Positions 1-29,882 of a stretch of 30,439 nucleotides of DNA are shown one piece after another. Within the stretch, counting starts at the first letter, position 1. Each line of letters opens with the position of its first letter. The notes below the pieces were generated by a model that was not told the origin of the DNA, searched no databases, and saw only the letters and a program-made list of their open reading frames with translations. The DNA is from a virus, in IMG/VR virus record IMGVR_UViG_3300032118_000041, positions 1 to 30,439 of that record; one strand, written 5' to 3'. A program made the position numbers and the translations under genes.

Positions 1-24
1 AGGGCGTACAGTGTATGGGCGTTA

Positions 25-55
25 GGGGATCGGGGAGGTAGTGGGGGTGTAGGGG
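25..55 (+). other. Putative G-quadruplex motif
   Basis: Four runs of at least four G (25-28, 32-35, 43-47 and 52-55) are separated by loops of 3, 7 and 4 bases. This fits a classical intramolecular G-quadruplex with up to four tetrads. A fifth run (63-66) lies just inside the next reading frame. It is on the coding strand immediately before the ATG at 61, so it could form in the mRNA leader or in displaced DNA. Function is not known; the surrounding gene is also unusually G-rich. Confidence 0.5.
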
Positions 56-60
56 TAAGG

Positions 61-753
61 ATGGGGCCGTGCTCGAGATGTGGTGCGATGTATTCAATCA
101 CTGGTAATCATTTAGGGTCTGAGCGATGTTATGCGCGGGTGGTACGAAACAAGGAATTAGCATTAGGGAATATAATTTTAGAGAGCGTATATCAGCCTGA
201 GGGGAAGATACTGGAATATTTTCGTAGTGTAGGGGCTGAGGCACATGAGGACTGGGGAGGGGAGACACCGAAGGGGCGGGCGAAGCTGGTATGGTTTGGG
301 GCTGGGTGGATGGTGAACGCGGTGGGAGGGATATTGAATTCTCGAGGGGACGGGAGTGTGAGCCATGATTTTCCGGAGGAGGTAGATTATTTGAGGGCGC
401 GTATGGGGATAGACAATTCCAATTGGGAAACTCTGGACCGGACTCATTCGACGTTGATTCGATGTTTGGTGGCAGATTTGGGGCATGACATGGCGGTACG
501 GGTGTTGGGGGAGGTGGTGGAGTGGTTGGCTGACCAGTGGGCACCGTCGTATGTGAGGGTGATGGGGGAGGCGGCATATGGTGGGGGGCTGGCGATTTCT
601 GGGGTTCGGGGGAAGTTGTATTTCAAGGCCCTCGAATTTGGAAGACAGAATGGTTTGTCGTTGTATTTTGCGAAACGATTCAACAAGGGCGGTGTACGGA
701 ACTATCTAACGATGTGCGCTACGAAAAGCACAAGTGACGTTTCGATGTACTGA
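61..753 (+). CDS. Unknown G-rich gene with N-terminal CxxC
   Basis: Encodes 230 residues that I do not recognise. The N-terminus has a CSRCG pair and another Cys at residue 23, suggesting a small metal-binding knuckle. The remainder looks globular, with an aromatic-rich middle (WFGAGWMVNAVGG) and no signal peptide or membrane segment. The start is uncertain. ATG 61 is the first ATG, but the frame stays open to base 1 without another start codon, and the purine-rich stretch before 61 is too close for a normal SD. The gene may therefore begin outside the window. The coding strand has very many GGG and GGGG runs and few C, unlike the genes from 2176 onward. Confidence 0.6.
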   Translation: MGPCSRCGAMYSITGNHLGSERCYARVVRNKELALGNIILESVYQPEGKILEYFRSVGAEAHEDWGGETPKGRAKLVWFGAGWMVNAVGGILNSRGDGSVSHDFPEEVDYLRARMGIDNSNWETLDRTHSTLIRCLVADLGHDMAVRVLGEVVEWLADQWAPSYVRVMGEAAYGGGLAISGVRGKLYFKALEFGRQNGLSLYFAKRFNKGGVRNYLTMCATKSTSDVSMY

Positions 754-816
754 GGAGGGATCGGGAAGTGTGGAGGGATCGGATCGGATGTGGAGAAGTT
801 GAGTTTAGAGTGAGAG

Positions 817-915
817 ATGGTCGAAGACCTGATGACCATCGTCCACTGCTTCTCGTCGAGGCTCTACGGATTGCGTAACTACCGCAAGACGCTCAAGGCG
901 GCACTGGCCTCATGA
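817..915 (+). pseudogene. tnpA: IS607 TnpA serine recombinase, C-terminal remnant
   Basis: ATG at 817 opens 31 codons beginning MVEDLMTIVHCFSSRLYG and ending at the TGA at 913-915, which overlaps the tnpB start. The VEDLM..IV..FS.RLYG.R..RK pattern matches the C-terminal helix of IS607-family serine recombinases, which normally lies directly before tnpB. The in-frame codon two positions upstream is TGA (811-813), and no catalytic-serine domain or MerR-like helix-turn-helix is present. It is therefore a truncated relic. Whether the stub is still translated, for example to couple tnpB translation, cannot be told. Confidence 0.65.
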
Positions 916-2162
916 TTCGCGGACACGTCATACGCTTGGACCCAACGGTCAAGCAGGCGAACGCTCTTGCACGCGCTGCTGGCGTCTCGCGGTTTACGTA
1001 CAACTGGGCGCTCGCGGAGTGGACCAGACAGTACCGTGCTGGTGAGAAGCCGTCCGCGGCCAAGCTCAAGAAGCAGTTCAACGCCGTGAAGGGCGAGCGG
1101 TTCCCTTGGGTCTACGAGAGCCCCCGTGACGCGAATAGTCAAGCGTTCGCAGACTTGAACAGCGCGTTCAGCAACTTCTTTGCATCGTGCAGCGGGAAGC
1201 GTAAGGGCAAGAAGCTAGGCTACCCGCAGTTCCGCAGGCGGGGCCAGCACGATGCGTTCTACGTGTCGAACGACAAGTTCTCGCTTCGTCGCAGAGGCAA
1301 GCGTGGTGTCGTTCGTCTGCCGGTCATCGGCGACGTGAAGACGTTCGAGCATCTTCGCTTCCAGGGTAAGATCATGTCTGGCCATGTGTATCGCCAAGCC
1401 GATCACTGGTTCATTGCAGTCAACGTCGAGGTCGCGGTCGAACCCGTGCAACACACGCACCCGCACGCGATCGTCGGCGTCGACCTCGGGCTTAAGACGG
1501 CCGTCGTCACCTCCCACGGCGAGGCAATCGACGCGCCCAAACCGTTGAAGCGTTGCTTGCAGCGGCTCAAGCGAGCGGCCCGTGTGGTGTCCCGGCGTGA
1601 GAAGGGCGGCAAGAACCGGGCGAAGGCTCGTGCTCGTCTTGCTCGCCTGCATCAGCGAATCGCGAACGTGCGCAAGAACTTTTGGCATCAAGTCACGACC
1701 GATCTCTGCCGCGAGAACCAAACGGTGGTGATCGAGGACTTGAGCATGGCCTTCATGTTGCGCAACAGGAAGCTGGCGAGAGCGGCATCGGATGTCGGTC
1801 TAGGCATGTTCAATCCGTTGATGCTGTACAAGGCGAAGGCGCTTGGCGGGCAGGTCGTTGTCGCTGATCGCCTCTTCCCGAGCACACAGCGGTGTTCACG
1901 GTGCGGCAACGTCAAGACGGGTGACGGCCGCCTTGGCCTTGCCGACAGAGTGTATCGGTGCGCGGCGTGTGAAGCGAGTGAAGATCGCGATCTGAACGCC
2001 GCAGTGAACTTGGAACAGTACCCAGGGCTTCTGGGGAACTGGGGCCGGCAGGCCCGAACGCCCATGGATGATCACGCCTCTACTCGGTTGGCCCCTGCCA
2101 GTCGAGCAAGCGAGATCGCTGAAGTGGGAACTAAACCGTGCGCACGTTTGCGCACAAATTAG
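912..2162 (+). CDS. tnpB: TnpB, RNA-guided RuvC nuclease of an IS607-type element
   Basis: At 416 residues this is normal TnpB length. The N-terminal helix-turn-helix-like part opens IRLDPTVKQ and continues with the usual SRFTYNWAL. RuvC-I is GVDLGLKT with catalytic Asp191. RuvC-II is VVIEDL with Glu275. A zinc ribbon follows (CSRCG at 328-332, CAAC at 350-353), then RuvC-III DRDLNAA near 358-364. All catalytic and zinc residues are present, so the enzyme looks functional. TnpB proteins are guided by an omega RNA made from the 3' end of their own gene and cut DNA at a matching target, helping the element persist. The start overlaps the tnpA remnant by ATGA. The C-terminal tail past residue 370 is low-complexity, as usual where coding sequence and guide-RNA scaffold overlap. 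Confidence 0.93.
   Translation: MIRGHVIRLDPTVKQANALARAAGVSRFTYNWALAEWTRQYRAGEKPSAAKLKKQFNAVKGERFPWVYESPRDANSQAFADLNSAFSNFFASCSGKRKGKKLGYPQFRRRGQHDAFYVSNDKFSLRRRGKRGVVRLPVIGDVKTFEHLRFQGKIMSGHVYRQADHWFIAVNVEVAVEPVQHTHPHAIVGVDLGLKTAVVTSHGEAIDAPKPLKRCLQRLKRAARVVSRREKGGKNRAKARARLARLHQRIANVRKNFWHQVTTDLCRENQTVVIEDLSMAFMLRNRKLARAASDVGLGMFNPLMLYKAKALGGQVVVADRLFPSTQRCSRCGNVKTGDGRLGLADRVYRCAACEASEDRDLNAAVNLEQYPGLLGNWGRQARTPMDDHASTRLAPASRASEIAEVGTKPCARLRTN
2138..2155 (+). other. 7-bp hairpin at the tnpB 3' end, candidate omega-RNA stem
   Basis: A perfect 7-bp inverted repeat (GTGCGCA, 4-base loop, TGCGCAC) lies in the last codons of tnpB. In TnpB systems the guide-RNA scaffold occupies the 3' end of the gene, and the guide is the flanking sequence directly beyond the element. 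If this stem is the last scaffold stem, the guide would be read from about 2156 onward, into the leader of the gene at 2176. The exact scaffold boundary is inferred. Confidence 0.4.
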
Positions 2163-2175
2163 AGAGCAGGGATTG

Positions 2176-2526
2176 ATGCCTGAGGTGTTTGGATGTCGAC
2201 GGTGTGGGTACTGCTGCGTTTATATGTCGGTCGTCATACCTCGAGTTCTTTCGGACGGCACGATGGATTACGTGTACAAGTCGAACGATGTGCTATGCCC
2301 CTACCTTCTCTTGGAGGAGGGGCAGGCGAGCTGCACAATTCACGACGAGGAGTTCTTCGAGGAGTCCCCATGCCATTTACACAACAATCCAAATTACGAC
2401 CCGGATTTGGGTTGCTGGCGTGGGGTATGGCGGTGCATAGGACCGAAGCTGGTCGAGCAGGGAATTTTCATGAAGAGGCCCCCGGAGGAATACGTCTGGG
2501 AAGAGGAATACAAACACAATGACTGA
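2176..2526 (+). CDS. YkgJ-like Cys-cluster (zinc/iron-chelating) protein
   Basis: Encodes 116 residues. A CRRCGYCC cluster near the N-terminus is followed by CPYL, CTIH and a later PCH. This spacing is typical of the YkgJ/UPF0153 family of putative zinc- or iron-chelating proteins, whose biochemical role is poorly known. The open frame extends upstream into tnpB (to 2068), but those codons belong to the transposon. ATG 2176, with AGCAGGG a few bases before it, is the sensible start. The TnpB element therefore ends right against this gene and probably displaced its native leader or promoter. The 3' end overlaps thyX by 8 bases, so the two are likely co-translated. Confidence 0.7.
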   Translation: MPEVFGCRRCGYCCVYMSVVIPRVLSDGTMDYVYKSNDVLCPYLLLEEGQASCTIHDEEFFEESPCHLHNNPNYDPDLGCWRGVWRCIGPKLVEQGIFMKRPPEEYVWEEEYKHND

Positions 2527-3220
2527 CATTGTAGAGAAAGTTGTAATTCACCAGCCGCTTGTCGTGTGCCTGACGCCGCTACGAGAAATCCATCGGCAGT
2601 TGGCGATTTGCGAGTTCGCTGGCCGTCGGTCTCATCACCTGCTGTGGGAGCAGCCCGAGATTGATAGGCTGCTGTCGGGGAGGGATGAGGGTCATGTGGA
2701 GACGTTGGAATTCCTGAGGCGACGACTTGCTGCGCGGCCGCCGCATGCGACGGTCATCGAGCACGCCAACGTGACCTTTGCGTTTTTGATGTCGAGGGTA
2801 GCCTCCCACGAATTCGTGCGGCATCGAATTGGGTCGCCGACACAGTCGAGCACGCGTTTTATCGAGCAGGAGAGGACGCTCCACCTCGTCTCGCCAACCA
2901 TGAACGAGACAAAGATGTTTGACGTGAGGGGCGAGCAATTCCCAGATGGCTTTCCTTCCTGGGCTTTCACCTGCTTTTCCTCTGTGCGTGCCTACCATGA
3001 CCTGCGGGCTGCCGGTGTCAAGCGTGAGCAGGCTCGCTATGTGCTGCCCCATGCGCTTGCCACTTCGCTCGTCCACACCACCAATCTTCGACAGTGGATC
3101 CACATGATCCACCTGCGTACGGGCAAGGCGGCGGCGCCCGAGATGCAGTTCATCTTTGGCAAGGTACGCTCCATGCTCGCCGAGGCGACGGACAATCTAC
3201 TCGAGGGGCTGTGCGAGTGA
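2519..3220 (+). CDS. thyX: Flavin-dependent thymidylate synthase
   Basis: Encodes 233 residues, the usual ThyX size. The signature RHR-x7-S is present (RHR at 101-103, Ser111, followed by STRF), and the N-terminal part carries the family's helices up to H82 and the SR at 92-93. ThyX converts dUMP to dTMP using methylene-tetrahydrofolate, FAD and NADPH. Many phages carry it to raise thymidine supply for replication. It overlaps the YkgJ-like gene (SD GAGGA about nine bases before ATG). With the dCMP deaminase at 8796-9284, which yields dUMP, it would complete a dCMP to dUMP to dTMP route encoded by the phage. Confidence 0.93.
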   Translation: MTDIVEKVVIHQPLVVCLTPLREIHRQLAICEFAGRRSHHLLWEQPEIDRLLSGRDEGHVETLEFLRRRLAARPPHATVIEHANVTFAFLMSRVASHEFVRHRIGSPTQSSTRFIEQERTLHLVSPTMNETKMFDVRGEQFPDGFPSWAFTCFSSVRAYHDLRAAGVKREQARYVLPHALATSLVHTTNLRQWIHMIHLRTGKAAAPEMQFIFGKVRSMLAEATDNLLEGLCE

Positions 3221-3291
3221 TATGTAACGAGAAGGTACTCGCCCCTGGCCACGGATTTAACAGCGAGAGAAAAACGGAGCGAGGTTAATAG

Positions 3292-3627
3292 ATGAAACAG
3301 AACTCAGAACTGGGGTCCAGCGATACCATATTATTATATTGGCACTGCCTCCAATGTGGGGCTCACGATCCTGTCGAGCCGACTGGCGGAACAGAGCAGG
3401 AGCAATACGCTCTTGGAGATCACGAGCCTTGCATCAAATGCGGCTACGGGACCGCTCACGTAGTCACGCTTCGCATGGGCGCACACTACGAGCAGGGCCT
3501 CGCGCTCGGTATGGATATTAGCGATGCATGGGAGCGCGCTCGCAAGCCTAGCCGATCACACGCTCACGAAGAAGGCTCTCCTGATCCAGATCCATCGAAC
3601 GGATATGGCTTTGACAGAGACTTCTAG
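3292..3627 (+). CDS. Unknown small zinc-ribbon-like protein
   Basis: Encodes 111 residues after a good SD (GAGG seven bases before ATG). Two cysteine pairs, CLQCG (residues about 19-23) and CIKCGYG (about 47-53), are spaced like a zinc ribbon of the RNA-polymerase or transposase type. The C-terminal third is acidic and polar and probably disordered. There is no recognisable enzyme motif. It starts a run of small accessory genes. A role in nucleic-acid or protein binding is possible but not shown. Confidence 0.6.
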   Translation: MKQNSELGSSDTILLYWHCLQCGAHDPVEPTGGTEQEQYALGDHEPCIKCGYGTAHVVTLRMGAHYEQGLALGMDISDAWERARKPSRSHAHEEGSPDPDPSNGYGFDRDF

Positions 3628-3636
3628 GGGAAAATA

Positions 3637-3960
3637 ATGAGCGCAATTGAAATTACAGAAGCATATCCGCGATGCCGTAGGAGCAGTCGATACACAGCGG
3701 AGTCTTCCGACATGCCCTTATCCGTCGATGAAATCAAGACACACCTGCGCTCAGGGTATGACGTTTCCATTTTTGTTGACGGCTGGAGCAAGCCGTGGCT
3801 CTGCTATTTGGATGTGAACAACCAATTGCGCGCCGAGTGTCCGACTGCCCCAAAGGTCGTCCCGCTAGTTGTGAGCGTGTCGAGGGAGGGTGCCGTCTAT
3901 ACCGGATGCGACTGCGCGTGCCATGGAGAGGTGAAAGATGCGTCCAGAGATCACAAATAG
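3637..3960 (+). CDS. Unknown small protein, C-terminal CDCACH cluster
   Basis: Encodes 107 residues with an SD (AGGGGAAAATA) directly before ATG, nine bases after the previous stop. No family is recognised. The central part (about residues 30-75) looks like a small alpha/beta fold with a buried tryptophan segment (WSKPWLCYL). The C-terminus carries a compact CDCACH, a likely metal site. Its last 23 bases overlap the start of the next frame at 3938. Confidence 0.55.
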   Translation: MSAIEITEAYPRCRRSSRYTAESSDMPLSVDEIKTHLRSGYDVSIFVDGWSKPWLCYLDVNNQLRAECPTAPKVVPLVVSVSREGAVYTGCDCACHGEVKDASRDHK

Positions 3961-4375
3961 GCCCTGTCCGTGCAGCGGGGGCAGTTGCGAACCCAAATTC
4001 TATACGTACGACGATAAGGCCGAGACACACTTTCATCGAACTCTGGATGATGCGATTCAAGAGGTCGTAGCTTTTCGACACCCGGCTTTCGCATAGAAGA
4101 TCACGATCTATGGTTTTGCTCCGAAGGAAATTTCGGATACCTGCCGCGAGGATCTTGCTGTTGATATGCTGGACTGTATTCTCGAAAAACTTGATGACGA
4201 TTACGGGAATTTTTACGAGAGTACAGATCGTAAACCGTCTGGCGTCGCGGCTGCTCGGGAATTCGTTCGCGCTGTCGTAAATGAGTACGAGGTTTTTGTT
4301 TGTGAAAAGGTGGCCACTATCGAAGTCAACGTCGTGGAGTGGCTTGCAGCACATTTTAGAGGAGATAGTCTATGA
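3938..4375 (+). pseudogene. Small phage gene interrupted by an in-frame TAG at 4094
   Basis: ATG 3938, with SD GAGAGGTGAAAG, opens 52 codons ending HPAFA at TAG 4094-4096. The same frame then continues without another stop to TGA 4373-4375, reading KITIYGFAPKEISD and on to an ATG at 4166. The segment right after the TAG (codons 4097-4165) reads like ordinary protein but has no in-frame ATG, GTG or TTG, and the ATG at 4166 has no well-placed SD. The simplest reading is one gene of about 145 codons split by an amber codon, through mutation, sequencing error or readthrough. Two separate genes (3938-4096 and 4166-4375) remain possible. Function is unknown; the N-terminus has PCPCSGGSC. The end overlaps the next gene by ATGA. 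Confidence 0.6.
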
Positions 4376-4656
4376 GTATGTCAACACACGTATACGGATT
4401 TCATCCTCCGGACGAGAGGTGGGTGAAGATGAAGGCAATTTACGACGCCTATGTGGCGGCCGATCTACCCGTACCAGAAAAAATCCAAGAGTTTTTTGAT
4501 TGGAGAGCGCCGTCTGAAGCCGGGACCTTGATAGAGATCCCTCCAGAATGCCGACGAGGGTATCACGATGGCAACGGAGCAGAAGATGGGATTGAGGTTA
4601 TTCTGGAGAAACTCCCAGAGAATATAACGGTCATTCGTTTTGTGAATTCGTGGTGA
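4372..4656 (+). CDS. Unknown small phage protein
   Basis: Encodes 94 residues and starts by ATGA overlap with the preceding frame, so it is translationally coupled to it. SD GAGGAGAT lies just upstream. A helical N-terminal half (WVKMKAIYDAYVAADLPVP) is followed by an acidic linker and a short strand (ITVIRFVNSW). It resembles small hypothetical proteins common in accessory regions of tailed phages, but I cannot assign a function. There are no cysteine clusters, signal peptide or membrane segment. Confidence 0.6.
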   Translation: MSMSTHVYGFHPPDERWVKMKAIYDAYVAADLPVPEKIQEFFDWRAPSEAGTLIEIPPECRRGYHDGNGAEDGIEVILEKLPENITVIRFVNSW

Positions 4657-4710
4657 GGAAGTCAAGAAGTGCCAGTCAAAAAAGAAAAGCCTTCCGATAG
4701 AGGAGATTGA

Positions 4711-4941
4711 ATGTATATCGTAACTCTCAATGGGAAAGTAATGTGTGAAGGAACGCCGGACGAGGACTGCGACTTTCATATCGATCATGATCATCCAGTG
4801 TTCCACGACTCGTCCCGTGTTCATCCGGAGTCCGTCATACAGCTTTGGAGCTTTGGTGGGATTCCGCTATTCAAGCATCTTGTGTACGTCGCTAAACTTG
4901 ACGACGAAGGAAAACTTCAACTCGTGGCGAGGAAGGTTTGA
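4711..4941 (+). CDS. Unknown small protein
   Basis: Encodes 76 residues with a clear SD (AGAGGAGA) before ATG. The sequence is rich in His and Asp around residues 19-33 (CDFHIDHDHPVFHD), which might bind metal, followed by two predicted strands. No family is recognised. About 90 bases of mostly non-coding sequence separate it from the next gene. Confidence 0.55.
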   Translation: MYIVTLNGKVMCEGTPDEDCDFHIDHDHPVFHDSSRVHPESVIQLWSFGGIPLFKHLVYVAKLDDEGKLQLVARKV

Positions 4942-5033
4942 GATGAAGGGGCTCCTTCGACGTGGAAGGTAGGTAACAATCTATGTCAACACACCTGCGA
5001 GTCGAGGAAACTCGGATAATGTAAGGAGTAGGC

Positions 5034-9733: not shown

Positions 9734-9831
9734 TCTAGGTTATTGCGCTTGTTGTCGCATTTTCTTAGAGATTTTCGTAACTGTTTCGTATTTTCTTTTC
9801 TTTATCTGGTGGGTGAGCTAAACTTGGGAGT

Positions 9832-10065
9832 ATGCAGGTGTACGCCGCCTCCATGCAAGAGCCGTATAGAGGGTCTCGCAGAAAACGCGTGTTGACGTTT
9901 TCCGAGATGGTCGACGAATACCGTTCGTGCTTTTCATTCGACGACGCCATGTCTTCGTATGACACGTTCATGCTTCAAGGCGCCGTGCCGGATGTCGCGC
10001 TCAAAGCTCTACGTCATGTCTCCATAGAGCGTGGCTGGCAGCGTATCGTCGAGCTGGAAGAGTAG
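9832..10065 (+). CDS. Unknown small protein
   Basis: Encodes 77 residues; the SD is TTGGGAG just before ATG, and an in-frame ATG at 9853 is an alternative start. It has a basic N-terminus (YRGSRRKR) followed by helices. A -10-like TAAACT at 9819-9824 lies very close to the start, so the leader would be very short if used. It is divergent from the minus-strand gene. No family is recognised. Confidence 0.5.
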   Translation: MQVYAASMQEPYRGSRRKRVLTFSEMVDEYRSCFSFDDAMSSYDTFMLQGAVPDVALKALRHVSIERGWQRIVELEE

Positions 10066-10175
10066 CCTAACCCTCTGCATTTCAAATCCTTCTTGAATCC
10101 ACTTGCCAGGTCGAGCTATGGGGCGGCAGGGTAGCTCTATTGCCTTGTAGCTCTTCGTCTTATAGGAGGAATTGT

Positions 10176-10400
10176 ATGCAAAGGTGCTCAAAAGTAGAAC
10201 GTGGCGTGACCTGCTTTGATTGTGGTGCGTCGGAGATGGACGGCGACCTTCGTGTTTCTGGTTTTGGGGGGGACCACGTTTGCTTGGACTGTGAGTCTAC
10301 CCGTACGAATCAGGTCAAATTGCACGGATTGCTGGCTGTTGTGTGCGATCCAGCAGATCTGATGACGATGCATTCCTATCGTCCATCTGTTCCTTTTTAG
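10176..10400 (+). CDS. Unknown small zinc-binding-like protein
   Basis: Encodes 74 residues. ATG 10176 is chosen because AGGAGGA (10164-10170) sits five bases before it; an upstream TTG frame start has no SD. Cysteine pairs CFDCG (about 13-17) and CLDCE (about 36-40) are spaced like a zinc ribbon. It lies directly upstream of the large terminase, where some phages encode small terminase or HNH proteins, but it has no HNH or helix-turn-helix signature. Confidence 0.55.
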   Translation: MQRCSKVERGVTCFDCGASEMDGDLRVSGFGGDHVCLDCESTRTNQVKLHGLLAVVCDPADLMTMHSYRPSVPF

Positions 10401-10445
10401 GGAACAGCCCTGGGTCTTTCGTGTTGGCTTTGATAAGGTAGACGC

Positions 10446-12491
10446 ATGTCAGTTGGGCTTGACCTGTCGGAAGACCTGCATCCTCTGCTGGCCGCGTCGG
10501 CGTCAGCGTACTCCTCGCTTCTTCAGTGTGCCCGTGTGGATTTTCCGACTTTTTGCTCCCTTGTATTGCGGGACGAAGAGAAGGGGGAGCCGATTACGCT
10601 CATGCCGTTCCATTTCGAGTGGAGCGACGTGCTCGAGAAGAATCGGAACGTGGTGCTCTGGACGCATCCAGATGCCGGGAAGACCTCGTTGATGGCTATC
10701 GCCCGGCCGTTGTGGGTTCTGGGGCGGGATCCTCGACAGCGAATCGCCGTGTTGAGCGCCACGCAGAATGCTGCGAAGAAGGTCATCCGTACGATTCAAG
10801 GCTACATCATAAACAGCAAAACTCTTCGTGACGTGTTCCCAAATCTCCGCCGAGGATTGTTTTGGACCGATTCGGCTATCGAAGTGCGGCGTCCGAGCGG
10901 CATAAAGGATCCATCGGTGCAGGCCTACTCTCCTGAGGGTGGGAATATGCAGGGGGCCAGGCTGGACGGTCTCATCGTTGACGACGTCCTCAACGAGAAC
11001 AACACGCGGACGAGGTATCAGCGGGAGAAGATAGAGGAGTGGATCCGCTCATCGGCGTTTACGCGACTGTCGGAGGATGCGTGGATCGCGTTCCTTACGA
11101 ACGCCTGGCATCCGGATGACATGGCGCATGTTCTCGAGCGGCAAGGGTGGTGGGCAAAACGGTATCCCGTGATCGACGACGCTGGGCGCTCGACGTGGCC
11201 GGAACGCTGGCCGTTGTCTCGCATCGAGCATGTGCGCACGAAGACGCTGGGGCCGGTGGAGTTCTCGAGGCAGATGCTTTGTCAGCCACGGGACGAGAGC
11301 ACGGCGAGGTTCAAGCGTGAATGGATTGAGACGTGCCTAGCTCGTGGTGAGGGTCATCCGCTGGTGCAGGACCTGAACGACTTGGCGGCTCGGTATCCGA
11401 TGCTTGCAGAGGCATTTCAGATCAATGATTCGATCCTCGCCATGGGAGGTTTGCCCGATAACGTGATGGTTGTTTCTGGCGTGGACGTGTCGACCGGGCG
11501 AGAGAAGTCGGATTTGTCAGTGATTTTTACGCTGTTGACCTGGCCGGATGGGTCTCGACAGATTCTTGAAATTCAGTCTGGTAGGTGGCAGGGACCGGAG
11601 ATCATCGACCGGCTTGCTTCGGTGCACGACCGGTTTCGATCAGTAATGGTTGTAGAAAATAATGCGGCCCAAGAGTTTATTTTACAGTGGACCAGGGAGA
11701 AATATCCTGGTCTCCGCGTTCGGTCGTTCACGACAGGGAGGAACAAGCTCTCGCCCGAGTATGGTGTGGAGAGTCTCGCGGGGGAGCTTGCGGCCGGTCG
11801 GTGGATCATTCCATGTCAGCAAGGAAACCGTATTGTAGACCCTCAGGTTGGGAAATGGATTTCTGACCTCGTTGGGTACGATCCTGGCAGGCATACCGGC
11901 GACCTGCTTATGGCATGCATCGCACCTGGGTATCTCGTGGTGACGAAGCGCGGCCTCGTCCCGATTGAACAAGTGGTTCGAGGGGACTTCGTCCTCACCC
12001 ACAAGTCGAGGTGGCAGGAGGTCACTGGGACGACGTGCACATGGTATCGAGGGGACGCGGTCCGGTTGCGCGCCTGCGGGTTTGTAGAGATTCTCATGAC
12101 CGCGGAGCATCCGGTATGGTCGGCGTTGCCATGGGTCAACCCTGAGCATGAGACGATGGCGGTTCCTCATGCATGGGATTTCCGTTCAGCCGTGTCACTT
12201 CGTGCTGGAGAAGGACCGCAGAGTGATTTCGTCTTTGCCCCGGAGGTTCCAGACGGCATGCAGGAGGATGGCGCTGGTGACGTTGTGCGTATTGAGTACG
12301 CACGTCATGTGATGTACGAGGGGCTTGTCTACAATTTGCACGTCAAGCATGATGAATCTTTTGTGGTCGAGGGGATTGCCGTGCATAACAGTTGGTTTGC
12401 GCGAGAAGCATCGCGCATGTACGAGACGCATCGTCGAAAGCGTAAGGAACGACAGGCGGCGCAGAGCAATGTAAGAATCTTGGGGAAATAG
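10446..12491 (+). CDS. terL: Terminase large subunit carrying a mini-intein
   Basis: The 681-residue precursor gives a 523-residue TerL after removal of a 158-residue intein. The N-terminal ATPase has a Walker A-like HPDAGKTS (74-81), Walker B LDGLIVDD (173-180), and a motif III-like FLTNAWHPDD. The C-terminal RNase H-like nuclease has GVDVSTGREKSD near 345-356, VVENNAAQEF near 402-411, and the last acidic motif HTGDLLMA at 483-490. TerL pumps DNA into the prohead through the portal and cuts it. The intein sits directly after LLMA, and extein sequence resumes SWFAREASRMYE, so the two sides rejoin into a normal TerL tail. SD AAGGTAGA precedes ATG. Confidence 0.95.
   Translation: MSVGLDLSEDLHPLLAASASAYSSLLQCARVDFPTFCSLVLRDEEKGEPITLMPFHFEWSDVLEKNRNVVLWTHPDAGKTSLMAIARPLWVLGRDPRQRIAVLSATQNAAKKVIRTIQGYIINSKTLRDVFPNLRRGLFWTDSAIEVRRPSGIKDPSVQAYSPEGGNMQGARLDGLIVDDVLNENNTRTRYQREKIEEWIRSSAFTRLSEDAWIAFLTNAWHPDDMAHVLERQGWWAKRYPVIDDAGRSTWPERWPLSRIEHVRTKTLGPVEFSRQMLCQPRDESTARFKREWIETCLARGEGHPLVQDLNDLAARYPMLAEAFQINDSILAMGGLPDNVMVVSGVDVSTGREKSDLSVIFTLLTWPDGSRQILEIQSGRWQGPEIIDRLASVHDRFRSVMVVENNAAQEFILQWTREKYPGLRVRSFTTGRNKLSPEYGVESLAGELAAGRWIIPCQQGNRIVDPQVGKWISDLVGYDPGRHTGDLLMACIAPGYLVVTKRGLVPIEQVVRGDFVLTHKSRWQEVTGTTCTWYRGDAVRLRACGFVEILMTAEHPVWSALPWVNPEHETMAVPHAWDFRSAVSLRAGEGPQSDFVFAPEVPDGMQEDGAGDVVRIEYARHVMYEGLVYNLHVKHDESFVVEGIAVHNSWFAREASRMYETHRRKRKERQAAQSNVRILGK
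11916..12389 (+). other. Mini-intein (Hint domain) in TerL, residues 491-648
   Basis: The sequence starts at Cys491 with the splicing block A pattern CIAPGYLVVTKRG...PIEQV. Block B is TAEHPVW (552-558), with the usual Thr and His. Blocks F and G end VYNLHVKHDESFVVEG and AVHN (Asn648), followed by Ser as the +1 residue. At 158 residues there is room only for the splicing domain; no LAGLIDADG or HNH endonuclease block is seen. All residues needed for standard Cys-type splicing are present: Cys1, the TxxH His, penultimate His, terminal Asn and +1 Ser. It is therefore probably active but unable to home by itself. Confidence 0.92.
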
Positions 12492-15736: not shown

Positions 15737-18700
15737 ATGGAAGATTCTTTTTCAGCGGTGGTGGCGAGTTTTACCACGGAAACTATCTCAGGACAGGGAG
15801 CGTTTCGAGTGAGCAAATTTGAGCCGCCTCGTGGCGTGTTGCCGGCGCTCAAAGTTCCGGATCCACAATTCCTTGTAAGACGGCTGCGCCAGGGGGAGTC
15901 TGCAGCGTTGCTCTCTCGTCGCCAGCGTACCGAACGAATCGGAGATCCCCAGGCGCTCGTGAACGAGCTTTCCCAGAGCAACCCAAAGAGCGTGTTCGTA
16001 TGGGCCGTTGTCGCTCAAGACGCCCCGATAGCCATGGCTTCAATGGTTGAACTGTCCAAGGAGCAGCGAGCTGGAATAGACCCGCTGACGGCTGAGGAAT
16101 TTTCAACCGAGAAGAACATTTGGTATTTGCCGCTGCAGCTCGTGGTGGTGTTCGATCCTCCGTTGCAGCTTCGGCAAGCTCCAGAAGGACGACGCTTTGG
16201 CGGCGAGGTTGACTTTGACCAGGATGTAGTCAAAGCCGTTGCGTTTGACGTGATGCAGTTTGTTGCTGCACCAGATCCTGAGCGACTACGCTCTCTCTCA
16301 GATGAGGACTTGAGGACTGCCCAGAAAGATTTGATCCTGTGGTTTACGGAATATTTTGCTGGGAATTCATCTAACAGCGGAGGCGGCGCTTCACGAGAAG
16401 ACGTTGTCAACGCCTATATTTTCGTAATGGAGGAAGGTCGTCGGAGGGGGCTCGAGTTGACGTCCGATCCTGGATTGGATGGGGCGGCTGCAGTTCTCAA
16501 GTCTGTTATAGCCCCAAAGTTTGCGGTGATTCATCCGAGCGGACTCGGGAAGCATCATGACGATCCGGCGACCTTGGACGAGGTGTTGGCGCATTGGTCC
16601 CAACCGATGGCCCTGCGAATGCCGGCGGTCTTTTTGGTGGGGTCGCTGTGCAACCATCGGAAGTCGGACAACGACATTGACGTGCTCATTCGGGGTCCGT
16701 TGGATGAAGAGACCCGGCATGTGATCAAGTTTCGGCTTGGCCGCGCCTTGCCCCCTCGGCTGTCTTCCAGGGTTCAGTTTCATGACGATTCGCAGGGGGG
16801 TCCGTTCACGACCCACGTTCCGTTGTACGATTTGGTGCTGGTTCCGCATGCCAGAAAAGTCCAAATCGAGATGGTAGCAAAGCAAGACGATCCGCTTCTA
16901 GACTGGCCGAAGAAGCTTGGGGAGCGGTCCGGAGTTCTACAGGCTCATTTTAGGGGGTCAGGCTACCATCTCGACCTACGTATGCAGGTCGCCGACTATC
17001 TGGTTGGATGGACGATTGCGGCGATGAAGCCTGGAATCACTGGGAAAGTGGACACGATTGAGGAAGCCAATCGTGTCATGGCTCCATTTGATATGGAGGG
17101 GTCTGCGGCCAACAAGGTGATGATTCTTCCGAGCCGCGTCTACGCCGTTCCGAAGTCGAGGCAGTCCCTCGAGTGGCTGACGATTGGGGACGTGGTGTTC
17201 GAGCCAGGGTCTGTGGGAGCGACGCGATTTGAGGCAGGCGTTTACGTCGAGCTGGCGAAGCTCAAAGTTGAATGGGGCAAACAGGATCCCCATTTTCATG
17301 AATATTTTGTGTTTGGCACGCCAGAGTTTGAGGGGACCTTGACGTTCCGCATGCTCGAAGGCGGCGCTAGCCGGTCTACTGAAGATCTCACTGGCACGGG
17401 CGAGATGTTCTGGACGTCCGGATTTGCCAAGGTTGCGCTGCCTTCGATCCTTCGCAGTCGTTCGGTGGAGACTGGCGCGATGCCTCCGCTTGGGCAGTCG
17501 GCGATGCCCTCGTCGTTGATGGCGATTACGCCACGCGAGTTTCGGTTTTGGGAGGCTGACGGGGAGGCTGAGGCCCGAAAAATTCGAGATACATTGGTGT
17601 CCTCCAAGTTTTTCACTGAGGAGAACGTTCGGTTCGTTGACGGGGATTACACGAGAATTTCCACCAAGGTGCGTTCCGACGCCATCGACGTCGAGCAGTT
17701 TGATAAGCAGGTTCGTGTTTCGGACTTTGTGCTGTCCTGGCAATATTGGAAGGGGCAGACCGTTGTTCGTGGGACACCCAGCAGGCAGATTTTTCATCTG
17801 ATGCTCCCGATTTCAGCGGGAGGGCGTGTACAAGATTTTCAACTGCAAATTGATCCTCTATCAGGTGAGGAATCCATTTTGGCGGCCTTGGTTGAGGGCA
17901 GCGATGAGCTTCTGACGTTTGAGGGGGATGTCTCCCCAGGGCTGGAAGTTGGCGGAATTCACCTGAACAATACAAAGGCAACACCTTCGACACTGAAGAT
18001 AATCGACCAGGGAAAGGTCGACGTGTTGGATGACCAGCCAAACTTCAAGAAGCTTCGGTTTAGGGGATCGAAACTGAAAGGCTTGTTTACGCTGGTCCTG
18101 GAAGAAGTCGGAAGCGACTTTTGGGTTTTTTCGCCTGGAGGTGTCCCCTCTCGGAATGCGCCCTCGATAGAAAAGTCCGTTCGTGTGCGGGAGGACGGAA
18201 TGCAAATGTGGGACATCGCATCGAGGTCTGAAACTGACGACCGGGGTGGAGACCGCGAGAAACTTCGGCCTCCCGCTCTGTTTCAGCCGATGAAGCCTGC
18301 GCCGCGTCCATCCAATCGATTCACAGATCCCGAGACGGCAGCTCGCGAAGCCTTTACCGACGCCCTCCTTGCGGATGGCGTTCGAGTTGAGCCAAAATAC
18401 AACGGCTTTCGAGCAATCGCGGAACGATGGGAGGCCGGACTCGACGATGGTGCTTTGGATGATGGTGTGATGATTTATACGGAAGATGCGCAGCGCGACC
18501 TTGCTAAGATCCTGCCTGGCCTGACAAAGGATTTGGAAGGCCTCGGGGGGAGCTTCATTCTTGACGGCGAGATCATGGCGCTTGTGCCAGGTACCACTGA
18601 TGAGTTTCTCCCCCGTGCAGATTTGGCGCAGTTCCGAGGGTCAGTGCCCGCTGACGATGAGCAGCTCCGGTTTGTTGTGTTTGACATGCTGTATCACCCC

Positions 18701-19774
18701 ACGTTGGGGAACCTCCTTGCGCAACCGCTTGCAAAACGAGAGGCGAGTTTGGGTTCTTGGTGGCTCGAGCATAAGGGTTCGGCCCCACATATTTTGAAGG
18801 CCCCAGGGTTGCTTGCAGTTTCTCGGGAGGAACTCCTTCAGCGGATGAAGGTGATGAGTGCAAAGCCAGGGTCTGAGGGGGCGATGCTCAAACAGATCGG
18901 CTCCACCTACTCGCTCGGTGGGGAGCAGGATTTGTGGGTGAAGGTGAAAGTCGTCCGTGAAATTCTCGCGATGGTTGTAGAACGACACGAGGTGAAAGGG
19001 TCGCCTGGCGTTTACAATTTTGTTGGTGCCATCGGTCCAATTCCAGAGGGGGAGCTGTCTCAGTGGGCTGAGCCTGTCGAACTGAACGGGAAGCATTGGG
19101 CGATGGTCGGTCGGACGGGAAACCGCAAACTAGATGCAAATGTCGGAGACGTTATCGCAACGACAACGACCGAAATATTTTTCGAGGAGGGGCCTCCGAT
19201 TCGCGTTAGGTGGTTTGGGCCGGCGCAGGCACTTGCGAAGGTTGATATGCCTCCGACAACGATTTCAGAATTGAAGGCGTTGCTTCGTCCAGGAGAGATC
19301 TCCTCTGGTTCAAAGGACGCCTTAGCGGTTGACAAGTCAGACATGAAAAACGTTCGCAAGGATGGCCGTGCAGTGCGTATCGTGAAGGCTGTGGAGCCTA
19401 CCAAGGACACCTCCGAGCGATATGTGTTTGGCGTGGTGCTGATTCCAGATGAGACTGATGCGCAGGGCGACGTGTACACGGCTGCGGACGTACGCAAAGC
19501 TGCTCATTCGTTTTTGGAATTTTTCGGTGGAAAGTTTCGGGTTATGCACCAAGGTGAGCCGATCGAGGGTATACAGGTTTTGGAGTCCTACCTCGCCAAG
19601 CAACCAGAGACGCACGGGGAAGAAACGTTTCCGATTGGGACATGGTTCTTGGCTTCCAGAGTTAGAGACGACAAAATATGGGCGGCCATTCAGGCGGGTG
19701 AGTTTACTGGATTTTCAATGGGCGGCACAGCATTGCGAGAAAAGCTTTCGTCCTGTAACAATCGCGAGATATAG
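15737..19774 (+). CDS. Fusion: nucleotidyltransferase, phosphoesterase-like, ATP-dependent DNA ligase, XkdF prohead protease
   Basis: Encodes 1345 residues without a frame break. Residues about 1-230 are beta-rich, then helical, and not recognised. Residues 299-318 (GS, then SDNDIDVLI, with Asp313 and Asp315) match the Pol-beta-type nucleotidyltransferase motif. Residues about 400-560 resemble the LigD 3'-phosphoesterase (His404, His411, Asp413, Arg415; later FHEYFVFG). A second, more divergent copy may lie near 640-810 (KLKGLFTLVLEE). The ligase follows: EPKYNGFR with Lys887, LDGE at 942-945, FDML, EGAMLK at 1047-1052, and WVKVK at 1067-1071, then an OB-like tail. Residues about 1210-1338 are XkdF-like, with VMHQ (His1271) and GFSMGG (Ser1327). 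Ligase is normally a separate early protein, so this fusion is unusual. It lies between portal and scaffold, the usual protease position. Confidence 0.85.
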   Translation: MEDSFSAVVASFTTETISGQGAFRVSKFEPPRGVLPALKVPDPQFLVRRLRQGESAALLSRRQRTERIGDPQALVNELSQSNPKSVFVWAVVAQDAPIAMASMVELSKEQRAGIDPLTAEEFSTEKNIWYLPLQLVVVFDPPLQLRQAPEGRRFGGEVDFDQDVVKAVAFDVMQFVAAPDPERLRSLSDEDLRTAQKDLILWFTEYFAGNSSNSGGGASREDVVNAYIFVMEEGRRRGLELTSDPGLDGAAAVLKSVIAPKFAVIHPSGLGKHHDDPATLDEVLAHWSQPMALRMPAVFLVGSLCNHRKSDNDIDVLIRGPLDEETRHVIKFRLGRALPPRLSSRVQFHDDSQGGPFTTHVPLYDLVLVPHARKVQIEMVAKQDDPLLDWPKKLGERSGVLQAHFRGSGYHLDLRMQVADYLVGWTIAAMKPGITGKVDTIEEANRVMAPFDMEGSAANKVMILPSRVYAVPKSRQSLEWLTIGDVVFEPGSVGATRFEAGVYVELAKLKVEWGKQDPHFHEYFVFGTPEFEGTLTFRMLEGGASRSTEDLTGTGEMFWTSGFAKVALPSILRSRSVETGAMPPLGQSAMPSSLMAITPREFRFWEADGEAEARKIRDTLVSSKFFTEENVRFVDGDYTRISTKVRSDAIDVEQFDKQVRVSDFVLSWQYWKGQTVVRGTPSRQIFHLMLPISAGGRVQDFQLQIDPLSGEESILAALVEGSDELLTFEGDVSPGLEVGGIHLNNTKATPSTLKIIDQGKVDVLDDQPNFKKLRFRGSKLKGLFTLVLEEVGSDFWVFSPGGVPSRNAPSIEKSVRVREDGMQMWDIASRSETDDRGGDREKLRPPALFQPMKPAPRPSNRFTDPETAAREAFTDALLADGVRVEPKYNGFRAIAERWEAGLDDGALDDGVMIYTEDAQRDLAKILPGLTKDLEGLGGSFILDGEIMALVPGTTDEFLPRADLAQFRGSVPADDEQLRFVVFDMLYHPTLGNLLAQPLAKREASLGSWWLEHKGSAPHILKAPGLLAVSREELLQRMKVMSAKPGSEGAMLKQIGSTYSLGGEQDLWVKVKVVREILAMVVERHEVKGSPGVYNFVGAIGPIPEGELSQWAEPVELNGKHWAMVGRTGNRKLDANVGDVIATTTTEIFFEEGPPIRVRWFGPAQALAKVDMPPTTISELKALLRPGEISSGSKDALAVDKSDMKNVRKDGRAVRIVKAVEPTKDTSERYVFGVVLIPDETDAQGDVYTAADVRKAAHSFLEFFGGKFRVMHQGEPIEGIQVLESYLAKQPETHGEETFPIGTWFLASRVRDDKIWAAIQAGEFTGFSMGGTALREKLSSCNNREI

Positions 19775-22405: not shown

Positions 22406-22435
22406 GCGAGGGAAGGAAAGGGTGCTTCGTTGACA

Positions 22436-22460
22436 TCCTCCGCCAGCTAAAGTAGGCGGA
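22436..22460. repeat. Hairpin repeat, low-coordinate end of IS605-type relic
   Basis: The sequence TCCGCC (22439-22444) pairs with GGCGGA (22455-22460) across a 10-base loop, a perfect 6-bp stem. It matches the hairpin at 22741-22764 except for T versus C in the loop. It lies beyond the 3' end of the minus-strand tnpB remnant, so it would be the right end. Confidence 0.75.
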
Positions 22461-22478
22461 TTCCTGAAGGAGAAAATG

Positions 22479-22718
22479 CTAGGCGCTTTGCACTCCAGGT
22501 TGGTTCACAGTTTGACGACCACCGCGTGGCTTGGCAAGGGCCTTGCTACGTCTTCTGCGGTCTTCCTGTGCGTTTATCCTGTCGGTCTGTCCGACCGCCA
22601 GTATATTCAATGCGGCGTTGTTGTCCCGGTTGTGGACGACGCCACAAACAGGGTACAGGCGAAATTGGTAGTGCATCTTCACAGGAATCATGGTAAGTCT
22701 GTAAGCAGTGAAAGTCAA
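22479..22718 (-). pseudogene. tnpB: TnpB C-terminal remnant of an IS605-type element
   Basis: The minus-strand frame encodes a 79-residue piece with PVCGVVHNRDNNAALNILAV, which matches the last zinc-ribbon pair and RuvC-III motif of TnpB, followed by the basic C-terminal tail. The RuvC-I and RuvC-II parts are absent. The second zinc pair appears degraded (LYPVC for CPxC), and the usual HDRD reads HNRD. The frame is not a functional nuclease. Its 3' end still covers the interval that in TnpB elements is also the omega-RNA scaffold, so an orphan guide RNA is conceivable. Confidence 0.75.
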
Positions 22719-22740
22719 TCACCAAGAATGGAGCGGCACT

Positions 22741-22764
22741 TCCTCCGCCAGCTAAAGCAGGCGG
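22741..22764. repeat. Hairpin repeat, high-coordinate end of IS605-type relic
   Basis: CCGCC (22745-22749) pairs with GGCGG (22760-22764) across a 10-base loop. It is a near-perfect direct copy of 22436-22459. It sits 22 bases before the next ATG (22786), so the element ends just upstream of the SD (GAGGAG) of that gene. Confidence 0.75.
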
Positions 22765-22785
22765 TCTCCGTGCCGAGGAGACTAT

Positions 22786-27335: not shown

Positions 27336-28055
27336 ATGTCTCAAAGCTACGTCTACAGCATAGCGACTGACTTCCCAAATAATCGAATCTGTCCAGAAAC
27401 ACTTGAAGATTCGATTCAGACAAACATACTATCTGCTGCTTACGAGTACATGAATATCGTCAACGACGCGTGTATGTTGTTTTTCAGCTCTTTGTTGTCG
27501 GAGTCGGATGCCACCTTGCTGCTTGCGATCGTCAATACGCATACTGGGAATCCTCCACCAATGCCACCATCTGAGGTTATTCTTGTTGGAGACTCAGACG
27601 CTGGAATTCCTAGGGTTGCGGTTCAGCCATCGGCAATACCGAGTGTTGGGGTTGAGTTCTGTCTTGGTGTGACCTCAGAAATGTATCCTACAGGATCGCC
27701 TCCGGTAGACACATCGGAGACAGAGTCAGACATAATTCCGATCGGGAAGACGTTGCACATGCTATTTGCACGAGCCTCATGTGCGCCAAAATTTGATTCG
27801 GTAAACGTTCCGATTTACATGCTCGTTGAGTTGATTTGGCGCGAGGTATTCGAAGCAGAAACGTACGATCATTTGTTTGGAAAATCTTACCTTTTTGTTG
27901 AGTGTCAGGCGGACTTCCCATCAAGCTCGGTGTGCTTCGACGGCACATCGATGGTCGGAGATGGTGCAACAACAAGATTCGTCATTCGACGTACTGTGTT
28001 TGGTGCTGTTGACATCATAGATACTATCGTTGCTGTTCGAGGATACTACATATAG
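27336..28055 (+). CDS. Virion-region protein with duplicated C-terminal domain
   Basis: Encodes 239 residues with SD GGAGGG. Residues 1-75 are helical with LLLAIVNTHTGNP. Residues about 100-239 form a beta-rich domain that is clearly paralogous to the whole of the next gene product: VEFCLGVTSEMYP against EEFCLSVTSEMSP, IPIGKTLHML against IPAGKELHLF, and MVGDG-x4-FVIRR against MFGDG-x4-LVIRR. The N-terminal domain is not found in the neighbour. Function is unknown. Confidence 0.65.
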   Translation: MSQSYVYSIATDFPNNRICPETLEDSIQTNILSAAYEYMNIVNDACMLFFSSLLSESDATLLLAIVNTHTGNPPPMPPSEVILVGDSDAGIPRVAVQPSAIPSVGVEFCLGVTSEMYPTGSPPVDTSETESDIIPIGKTLHMLFARASCAPKFDSVNVPIYMLVELIWREVFEAETYDHLFGKSYLFVECQADFPSSSVCFDGTSMVGDGATTRFVIRRTVFGAVDIIDTIVAVRGYYI

Positions 28056-28063
28056 GAGGAATC

Positions 28064-28498
28064 ATGAGAGTAAGTCCAGCAGACGCAAATCTTCCTGATG
28101 GCGTGGAAGAGTTTTGTCTTTCCGTCACCTCTGAGATGAGTCCAGAAGACAAAGTGTTTGAAACAGTGTCGGAACCTATACCGGCTGGAAAGGAACTTCA
28201 TTTGTTTTCCATGAAGGCCTCTCGGGCTCCTATTGCGGAATCAGAGAGCATCCCTGACTATCTTCGAGTCGAACTTCTTTGGCGCGTGTCCGATGGGATT
28301 GACGTCATTGATCATGCTGTTGATAAGACGTATGCGACAATCTTCGAGGAAGTGAATCTTCAGGGAACGTTCACGTGTCTTGACGGGGTCAAAATGTTTG
28401 GAGATGGGGTGTCAGCGAGTCTTGTCATTCGGCGTTCGATCGTTGGGGACGGAAGCGTGCAGGACACCACGGTCACCGTACGTGGGTATGTGGCCTGA
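28064..28498 (+). CDS. Paralog of the preceding gene's C-terminal domain
   Basis: Encodes 144 residues with SD AGGAGG, eight bases after the previous stop. It aligns along its full length to residues about 100-239 of the preceding protein, including the AVRGY-type end (VTVRGYVA against AVRGYYI), so a tandem duplication is clear. It lacks the helical N-terminal part. The small beta domain may form the exposed part of a virion appendage. Confidence 0.65.
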   Translation: MRVSPADANLPDGVEEFCLSVTSEMSPEDKVFETVSEPIPAGKELHLFSMKASRAPIAESESIPDYLRVELLWRVSDGIDVIDHAVDKTYATIFEEVNLQGTFTCLDGVKMFGDGVSASLVIRRSIVGDGSVQDTTVTVRGYVA

Positions 28499-28517
28499 AG
28501 AGAGGAGATAGAATAGC

Positions 28518-28823
28518 ATGTTGTTTGCAAATAGAGCGGCTCAAGTTTTGTATATGATTACTGGAAATGGAGGAGACCCCCTAGTTCCAGGAACCACACT
28601 GTCCTTCAGAATTTCCTCGACGACGAATGCAGTAATTCTTGTGCTCGGCGATACTGAGGCGACTGGATATTCTGTGACTGCGCCACGGGCTGGTACGACT
28701 TCCTACACACTTGAAAACGATGGCGATTTGGAATCCTGCGCAACTAAGGCATCGTCACAGGTAGACGGTATTTTCGGTCGGTCGGCGACGGCTCCTAGGA
28801 CCGCGACGGTGGTTTCGCCCTAG
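28518..28823 (+). CDS. Unknown small beta-rich protein
   Basis: Encodes 101 residues with SD GAGGAGA. It is Thr-, Ser- and Gly-rich and beta-like, without cysteine clusters or membrane segments. It is probably a virion accessory protein by place. A 10-base palindrome GCCCTAGGGC overlaps its stop codon but has no T-run. Confidence 0.5.
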   Translation: MLFANRAAQVLYMITGNGGDPLVPGTTLSFRISSTTNAVILVLGDTEATGYSVTAPRAGTTSYTLENDGDLESCATKASSQVDGIFGRSATAPRTATVVSP

Positions 28824-28847
28824 GGCTACCATTTTTCAAGGGTCATC

Positions 28848-28856
28848 TGCTAGAAT
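28848..28856 (+). promoter_or_regulatory. Extended -10 promoter motif
   Basis: TGCTAGAAT gives an extended -10 (TGn then TAGAAT), matching the TGCTAG at the promoter near 7138. Transcription from it would begin about seven bases downstream, almost exactly at the GTG start at 28863, implying a leaderless or near-leaderless transcript. No strong -35 is seen. The intergenic gap here is only 39 bases. Confidence 0.4.
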
Positions 28857-28862
28857 CATAGG

Positions 28863-29552
28863 GTGACCGACCGTACAAGCAGAATTCCTAGTCGGCGTCG
28901 GCTTACACTTACGCCTCCGCCCGCCATAACTCCAATTGAGGATTGGGGGCAGGCCTGGGAGCAGATTGTGCGTATTGCGGCTGCCGTCAATCGCGTGGCG
29001 GCCGTCGCCGAGGCGTTGGACGGAGTAATTCCAGAGATGCAAGATGACACCCATGATGCGCAAATTCAATCAGCGCGTTGCACTGTGGCTGTCGAGTCCT
29101 TGGATGGCCGTTTGGCACGTATGGAATCTGCTGTATCTGCACCACATGTGTGTGTTCAAGAGAAACCCGTTATTGATCTTGTTACGCTATTACGAAATCA
29201 GGCTCAAACGTTGTCGACATTCTCGAATGAAGTTGTTGCTGTGCGAGAGCGACTTTCTGCGTCTGATACGGCTATAATGCATTTGAGTCAGAATATCGCA
29301 CGGAATGCAGGCCGACGACGCGAGTTGATTTTTTATATTGTAGGTGTTCTGATTGCGTTTCTTGGAGCGGTAGGAGGTGCTATTTGGTACGTGGCCCAAA
29401 TGGCTAAAACTCTGGAATTGGAAGCGAGCCAACGGCAACGAGATCAAGTTCAAATAATGGAACGATTTGACAGATTACACGCTCCGGTTTCGCGTCCAAC
29501 CTTGGGACAGATCTTTCCTCCAAGAGCTAATCCAGTGGATCCCAATGAATAG
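28863..29552 (+). CDS. Membrane protein with coiled-coil stem
   Basis: Encodes 229 residues, GTG start close behind an extended -10 and without an SD. A Pro-rich basic N-terminus is followed by helices with heptad character (about 28-145). A strong membrane helix spans about 155-178 (FYIVGVLIAFLGAVGGAIWYV). Then comes a short helical, then Pro-rich tail. The design resembles membrane-anchored phage accessory or spanin/holin-like proteins, but there is no catalytic motif. A separate promoter suggests its own timing. Confidence 0.6.
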   Translation: MTDRTSRIPSRRRLTLTPPPAITPIEDWGQAWEQIVRIAAAVNRVAAVAEALDGVIPEMQDDTHDAQIQSARCTVAVESLDGRLARMESAVSAPHVCVQEKPVIDLVTLLRNQAQTLSTFSNEVVAVRERLSASDTAIMHLSQNIARNAGRRRELIFYIVGVLIAFLGAVGGAIWYVAQMAKTLELEASQRQRDQVQIMERFDRLHAPVSRPTLGQIFPPRANPVDPNE

Positions 29553-29572
29553 GTCTATTACGGGGGATTTTC

Positions 29573-29881: not shown

Positions 29882-29882
29882 C

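What the first reader, a model, noticed from the sequence alone, without database searches (positions are those of the whole stretch)
811..2180. Intact TnpB in an IS607 element that lost its recombinase
The nuclease keeps all RuvC and zinc residues, while only 31 codons of the TnpA tail survive and stay coupled by ATGA. Selection may thus act on TnpB itself, for example as a phage-borne RNA-guided nuclease. The element abuts a gene at 2176, so the guide would be read from that gene's leader.
Basis: partly seen in the sequence, partly recalled or inferred. Interest (0 to 1): 0.6.

Follow-up and report, generated by a model that had tools for sequence, protein, structure and literature searches.

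The report
Phage RNA-guided nuclease without its transposase
A bacterial virus carries a complete-looking RNA-guided DNA-cutting gene left over from a jumping gene whose own jumping enzyme is almost wholly deleted, and comparison with a sister virus hints that such cutters may move between viruses by recombination instead, though this is not shown.

Summary
Observation confirmed, limits corrected. TnpB (912-2162, 416 aa) keeps the RuvC D-E-D and four zinc cysteines, and overlaps by ATGA the tail of an IS607 serine recombinase (about 40 of some 200 codons, with a TGA). Relatives fix the right end at 2169 (covarying hairpin 2138-2155, then AGAGAGCAG), so the predicted guide is 2170-2189 and includes the next gene's start codon, not 2155-2160. 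The left limit is best put at 795/796, after GGAG, the motif before the left end of nine relatives with full TnpA. Joining the flanks fuses the downstream gene in frame to an upstream start (ATG in the sister phage, ATC here). So the element (796-2169) most likely sits precisely in its target with the recombinase deleted from within. A sister phage (G001) carries the same copy at the same site: 3 differences in 1374 bp against 16 in 357 just downstream. G001 holds four TnpBs and no detected transposase. In the compared stretch the only three near-identity tracts contain or abut the three sites where G001 has a TnpB. Transposase-less TnpBs are common and phage TnpBs known, so the element is a new member of a known kind. 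TnpB-driven homing between phages is attractive but unproven.

The parts
796..2169 (+). whole element, 1374 bp: deleted tnpA, tnpB, omega RNA, right end
   Evidence: right end from the motif shared by 17 sequences; left limit from GGAG flank and in-frame join of the flanks
792..795 (+). GGAG, left flank; predicted TAM / target motif
   Evidence: same motif before the left end of nine relatives with full TnpA, placed by eye; published IS607 TAM AGGAG (PMC11061315, passages)
796..915 (+). remnant of IS607 tnpA, about residues 162-201; TGA at 811-813, open from ATG 817
912..2162 (+). tnpB, 416 aa, start overlapping the tnpA stop as ATGA (912-915)
2090..2169 (+). 3' part of the predicted omega RNA scaffold, overlapping the tnpB 3' end
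   Evidence: alignment A2 of 17 sequences, AGCAG invariant; no Rfam match that holds up
2138..2155 (+). terminal hairpin of the omega RNA (7 bp stem, 4 nt loop)
   Evidence: 5 of 7 pairs with changes on both sides in 14 sequences; covariation score 0.356 against shuffled 0.169, 0 of 500 shuffles as high
2170..2189 (+). predicted 20-nt guide GGATTGATGCCTGAGGTGTT
   Evidence: first variable bases after the invariant GCAG in 17 sequences; only copy in the window at up to 3 mismatches (18-mer)
2176..2526 (+). downstream gene, weakly CxxCxxCC-like, 116 aa from ATG 2176; interrupted after codon 12 of its probable original frame
   Evidence: PF03692 15.0 bits, below cut-off 23; in-frame join
760..795 (+). 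separated first 12 codons of the downstream gene; start is ATC in the window, ATG in G001

Best explanation
This is an IS607-type element in a tailed phage that has lost its serine recombinase by an internal deletion but keeps a complete TnpB, its omega RNA and both junctions with the target. TnpB and the 3' end of its mRNA would form a nuclease whose guide (2170-2189) matches the unoccupied site GGAG|GGATTGATG... at the start of a small phage gene. The occupied copy is spared because the guide is preceded by GCAG, not GGAG. The nuclease would therefore cut only phages that lack the element, and repair from an occupied phage would copy it in. Shown here: gene integrity, conserved and covarying right end, limits consistent with the target motif, the same copy in two phages with far less divergence than its right-hand neighbourhood. 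Inferred: expression, nuclease activity, TAM, cutting of empty sites, spread by homing.
For: Catalytic and zinc residues intact; predicted fold closest to TnpB-omegaRNA-DNA complex 8h1j and ISFba1 TnpB 8iaz. Omega RNA hairpin covaries. Left flank GGAG, right end GCAG as in relatives. Joined flanks give a 130-aa frame with its own ATG behind GAGGAGGG in G001. Element 3 of 1374 differences, right flank 2170-2526 16 of 357, Fisher 4e-9; left 60 bp 2 of 60, Fisher 0.016; nearest flanking differences at 764 and 2224. No IS607 or Y1 transposase over cut-off in either record. With at most 2 or 3 differences per 500 bp only three tracts exist, and they contain or abut the three sites where G001 has a TnpB. 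Homing was proposed for TnpB (PMC8612924, passages), and a gene-drive effect of IS200/605 TnpB in plasmids is reported (PMC11870625, abstract).
Against: No expression or cleavage data. No empty site found: one exact-guide scan and one degenerate scan of IMG/VR found none, and the gene's only relative there is in G001. The in-frame join has a 1 in 3 chance (42 of 121 alternatives). The tract association was seen after the fact, fails at 1 difference per 500 bp, and the fourth TnpB-related site (22434-22785) lies in no tract. At the second site the window lacks the insertion although both flanks are near-identical, which plain homing does not predict. The left end proper is missing, so mobilisation in trans is doubtful. 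Sharing may be ordinary recombination or common descent.
Confidence: 0.5

Rival explanations
1. A dying IS607 copy: the deletion killed mobility, TnpB is intact only because the event is recent, and the phages share it by ordinary recombination or descent.
For: 3 differences, 2 of them amino-acid changes; a nonsense codon in the tnpA rest; transposase loss is common (16 partial and 77 absent of 135); 30% of TnpAs in one IS607 set are pseudogenes (PMC11061315, passage); another shared tract as identical as the element has no TnpB inside it (28841-30439).
Against: Element 0.22% divergent while right flank and thyX are 4-5%, so it is younger in common origin than its right-hand neighbourhood; both phages keep the frame, the right end and the guide.
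Confidence: 0.35
2. The left boundary is not the element's junction: the element was truncated into the start of a third copy of the tandem phage gene family of 61-753, whose members begin MEK or MDK.
For: 790-810 can be read V/M-E-K-L-S-L-E, like MDKLELK and MEKKLEMV of the G001 paralogues (sequence).
Against: The same codons match TnpA EKLS-PEQEMV; GGAG lies exactly where tnpA homology starts; joining at 795|2170 gives the in-frame gene with the G001 start codon.
Confidence: 0.15
3. TnpB works as an RNA-guided repressor of the neighbouring gene or a counterpart elsewhere, like TldR.
For: The guide covers a start codon; phage-encoded TldR repressors exist (PMC13418256, start of abstract and passages).
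Against: RuvC residues intact, whereas TldRs are nuclease-dead; no other site in the window within 3 mismatches of the 18-mer, and at up to 5 mismatches only one further site each in the window and in the fetched part of G001, without GGAG.
Confidence: 0.05

Closest known systems
IS607-family elements with tnpA + tnpB (L025, L138, L140; ISXfa1, ISFba1 in print)
   Same: same TnpA tail, overlapping or abutting tnpB, GGAG-type left flank, right-end RNA with guide taken from the flank
   Different: about 80% of tnpA and the left end are gone; the omega RNA here overlaps tnpB, unlike the RAGATH-18 reRNAs (no Rfam match that holds up)
IS1341-type (tnpB-only) elements and 'decays' of IS607 (PMC9956272, passages)
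   Same: tnpB without working transposase; that paper's rule would call this a decay of IS607 because tnpA-derived sequence remains
   Different: sits in a phage and is shared, at the same site, by two phages
L184 (IMGVR_UViG_3300047174_000041) and L129 (297,749-base viral contig)
   Same: L184: viral contig, tnpA reduced to residues 163-200, tnpB, same right end; L129: closest TnpB (57%), no tnpA found
   Different: different sites and only 40-57% TnpB identity; independent elements
ISDra2 TnpB (8bf8, 8h1j)
   Same: fold, catalytic residues, omega RNA at the tnpB 3' end
   Different: IS200/IS605 element with another TAM (recalled); 31% identity in the structural alignment

Membership tests
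TnpB RNA-guided endonuclease | RuvC D-E-D triad and zinc ribbon | tested here: met
TnpB RNA-guided endonuclease | structured right-end RNA with variable guide after it | tested here: met
   covarying hairpin, invariant GCAG, variable next base
TnpB RNA-guided endonuclease | guided DNA cleavage | not testable with these tools
   needs an assay
IS607 element | serine recombinase TnpA upstream of tnpB | tested here: not met
   only about residues 162-201 remain, one nonsense codon; 29.8-30.3 bits against cut-off 110
IS607 element (as a derivative) | no target duplication, exchange over a shared dinucleotide | tested here: inconclusive
   GGAG left, GCAG right, shared AG; no empty site available; GG in print (PMC6188088, passages)
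IS1341-type element | tnpB only, with both ends and no transposase-derived sequence | tested here: not met
   tnpA tail present; left end proper not recognised
TldR repressor | nuclease-dead RuvC | tested here: not met
Type V-F CRISPR (Cas12f) | CRISPR array nearby | tested here: not met
   no repeat array in 1-5000; PADLOC Cas12f hits read as shared ancestry
Homing element | occupied and empty alleles with conversion tract at the site | tested here: inconclusive
   near-identity limited to about the element; no empty allele

The most novel reading that the evidence does not exclude
Transposase-free TnpBs act as RNA-guided homing nucleases among co-infecting phages: they cut sister phages that lack them, repair copies them in, and this leaves tracts of near-identity at TnpB sites. 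G001, with four TnpBs of different kinds and no detected transposase, would be a phage in which several such cutters compete, and the AGGAG-like TAM steers this group to ribosome-binding sites so that guides span start codons.
Probability: 0.25. Interest if true: 0.75.

Novelty: new member of a known kind. Interest (0 to 1): 0.48.

Why it matters
Why so many TnpBs persist without a transposase is an open question (my judgement). Two related phages, one copy at the same site, and defined limits and guide give a concrete test of whether TnpB alone can spread by cutting empty relatives, as homing endonucleases do.

Tried and rejected
Empty site: relatives of the downstream gene, of thyX and of the upstream gene in IMG/VR gave only G001 or nothing; the degenerate joined-flank pattern gave nothing; blastn against phage records gave nothing. 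An exact 21-nt match to the guide in an unrelated phage gene (L199) is preceded by GGCTC, not GGAG; judged chance, no control scan was run.

Recurrent truncation: L184, L160 and L042 also keep only the TnpA tail, but their breakpoints differ and other partial TnpAs are longer, so I do not claim a hot spot.

Insertion just before start codons: 7 of 17 right ends have an ATG of a frame of at least 40 codons within 12 nt, against 3375 of 34000 random positions. Survival of insertions between genes could give the same, so it is only a hint. The 17 were chosen by their end motif.

GGAG at left ends was placed by eye: 9 of 11 upstream regions of TnpA genes at about 45% identity or more; L220 and L222 had none. 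Seven more distant or broken ones (L208, L210, L212, L213, L214, L216, L217) were printed but not assigned, and L209, L211 and L215 were not pursued. In A5 L140 aligned one base off. A3 used 14 of the 17 sequences of A2; L129, L004 and L007 were dropped for other hairpin geometry.

Tree of 31 TnpBs: the GCAG end is not one clade (4 changes). AlphaFold model is moderate (pLDDT 69.8; residues 371-416, where the gene overlaps the RNA, below 50). Genome searches for close TnpAs gave few full elements. Promoter scan empty.

Full report
What is there. The window is a 30,439-base virus record with terminase, portal and major capsid genes. At 912-2162 lies a 416-aa TnpB with all expected domains. D191, E275, D360 and the four zinc cysteines are invariant in eight aligned TnpBs and align with solved TnpBs. 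It is the only TnpB in the record above cut-off.

The recombinase. Upstream, 796-915 encodes the last 40 or so residues of an IS607 serine recombinase, 75% identical over 40 residues to a full-length TnpA next to a related tnpB in a Planctomycetota MAG (L025). One codon is TGA (811-813). TnpA stop and TnpB start overlap as ATGA (912-915). Nothing longer is found in this record or in G001, nor a Y1 transposase (10 of 14 control genomes responded).

The right end. Seventeen sequences, the window included, share a right end of hairpin plus a purine-rich motif ending in invariant AGCAG, followed by variable bases. The 7-bp hairpin (2138-2155 here) shows changes on both sides in 5 of 7 pairs among 14 sequences. 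This puts the end at 2169 and the guide at 2170-2189.

The left limit. In nine relatives with full TnpA the bases before the left end read GGAG (placed by eye). One published set of IS607 TnpBs uses AGGAG in 18 of 22 strains (PMC11061315, passages); a word search of that paper found no 'Shine', so the likeness of this TAM to a ribosome-binding site is my remark. My search for papers with TnpB and Shine-Dalgarno gave three (listing only, and passages of one); I did not see the point made there. In the window GGAG (792-795) stands exactly where tnpA homology begins. Joining 795 to 2170 gives, in G001, an open frame of 130 codons with its own ATG behind GAGGAGGG, running into the gene that now starts at 2176. 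In the window that ATG is ATC (760-762). In-frame fusion alone has a one in three chance. I conclude, with about 80% confidence, that the element sits between codons 12 and 13 of that gene and that the recombinase was removed from within, perhaps between the flanking GGAG and a GGAG inside tnpA (inference).

The sister phage. G001 (IMGVR_UViG_3300031885_000008, 67,381 bases) carries the same element at the same place. Element: 3 differences in 1374. Right flank 2170-2526: 16 in 357. thyX region: 36 in 694. Left 60 bases: 2. The median for 1374-bp windows is 4.44% (437 windows). The element is the least diverged, tied with one window starting at 29051. So the element is shared more recently than its right-hand neighbourhood, with the change near its limits (764 and 2224). 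The left flank up to 750 is 72-82% identical but belongs to a tandem gene family and may not be a true counterpart.

More TnpBs. G001 has three further TnpBs: one at the counterpart of window 10433, where the window is empty and which has a stop at residue 41 of the matched stretch; one abutting the counterpart of 28841; one outside the window's counterpart. Allowing 2 or 3 differences per 500 bp, exactly three near-identity tracts exist, 743-2329, 9738-10445 and 28841-30439 (limits for 2 per 500 bp, 20 bp margins included), and these contain or abut the three TnpB sites. Outside the element such tracts cover 9-10% of aligned positions, so two further coincidences have a chance near 0.009. This is post hoc and fails at 1 per 500 bp; at 4 per 500 bp a fourth tract without a TnpB appears. 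At 10426 the single difference within 10060-10720 falls in the target of the second TnpB's guide, which could be escape or chance.

How common. Of 172 relatives taken (146 unique with the window), leaving out the G001 duplicate and 10 with short upstream DNA, 135 remain: 42 full, 16 partial, 77 without detectable IS607 TnpA (one TnpA query at E 1e-3, so the absent class is an upper limit). The relatives were found by similarity and are not a fair sample. Nearest in the tree is L129 from a 297,749-base viral contig (100/99).

Verdict. The element is a TnpB-keeping, recombinase-deleted IS607 derivative in a phage: known in kind. What is worth following is the pair of phages, which makes transposase-free spread by RNA-guided cutting testable. 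Neither activity nor selection is shown.

Noticed in passing
window 22434-22785: About 350 bp present here and absent at the same place in G001; two near-identical subterminal palindromes and, on the - strand (22479-22718), a TnpB C-terminal scrap (PF07282 20.9 bits, below cut-off): a non-autonomous IS200/IS605-like relic. G001 has the end of a relative elsewhere.
   Followed up: partly
window 10426-10446; G001 55285-56521: G001 has a 1237-bp TnpB element just upstream of the terminase gene where the window is empty; the flanks are near-identical and one difference lies in the guide target.
   Followed up: partly
window 28841; G001 37156-38272: A third G001 TnpB stands in place of window 27560-28840 and abuts the 1.6-kb tract of 99.5% identity.
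   Followed up: partly
window 61-753; L002 about 187-1824: Gene of unknown family that is tandemly duplicated in G001, 72-82% between copies; very G-rich sense strand.
   Followed up: no
window 10446-12491: Terminase large subunit frame with a weak Hint-domain match (20.9 bits, below cut-off), probably a small intein.
   Followed up: no
window 15737-19774: A 1345-aa frame with both a DNA ligase domain and an XkdF-type protease domain.
   Followed up: no
G003 (genome of L026): A bacterial MAG with 99 TnpB-like matches.
   Followed up: no
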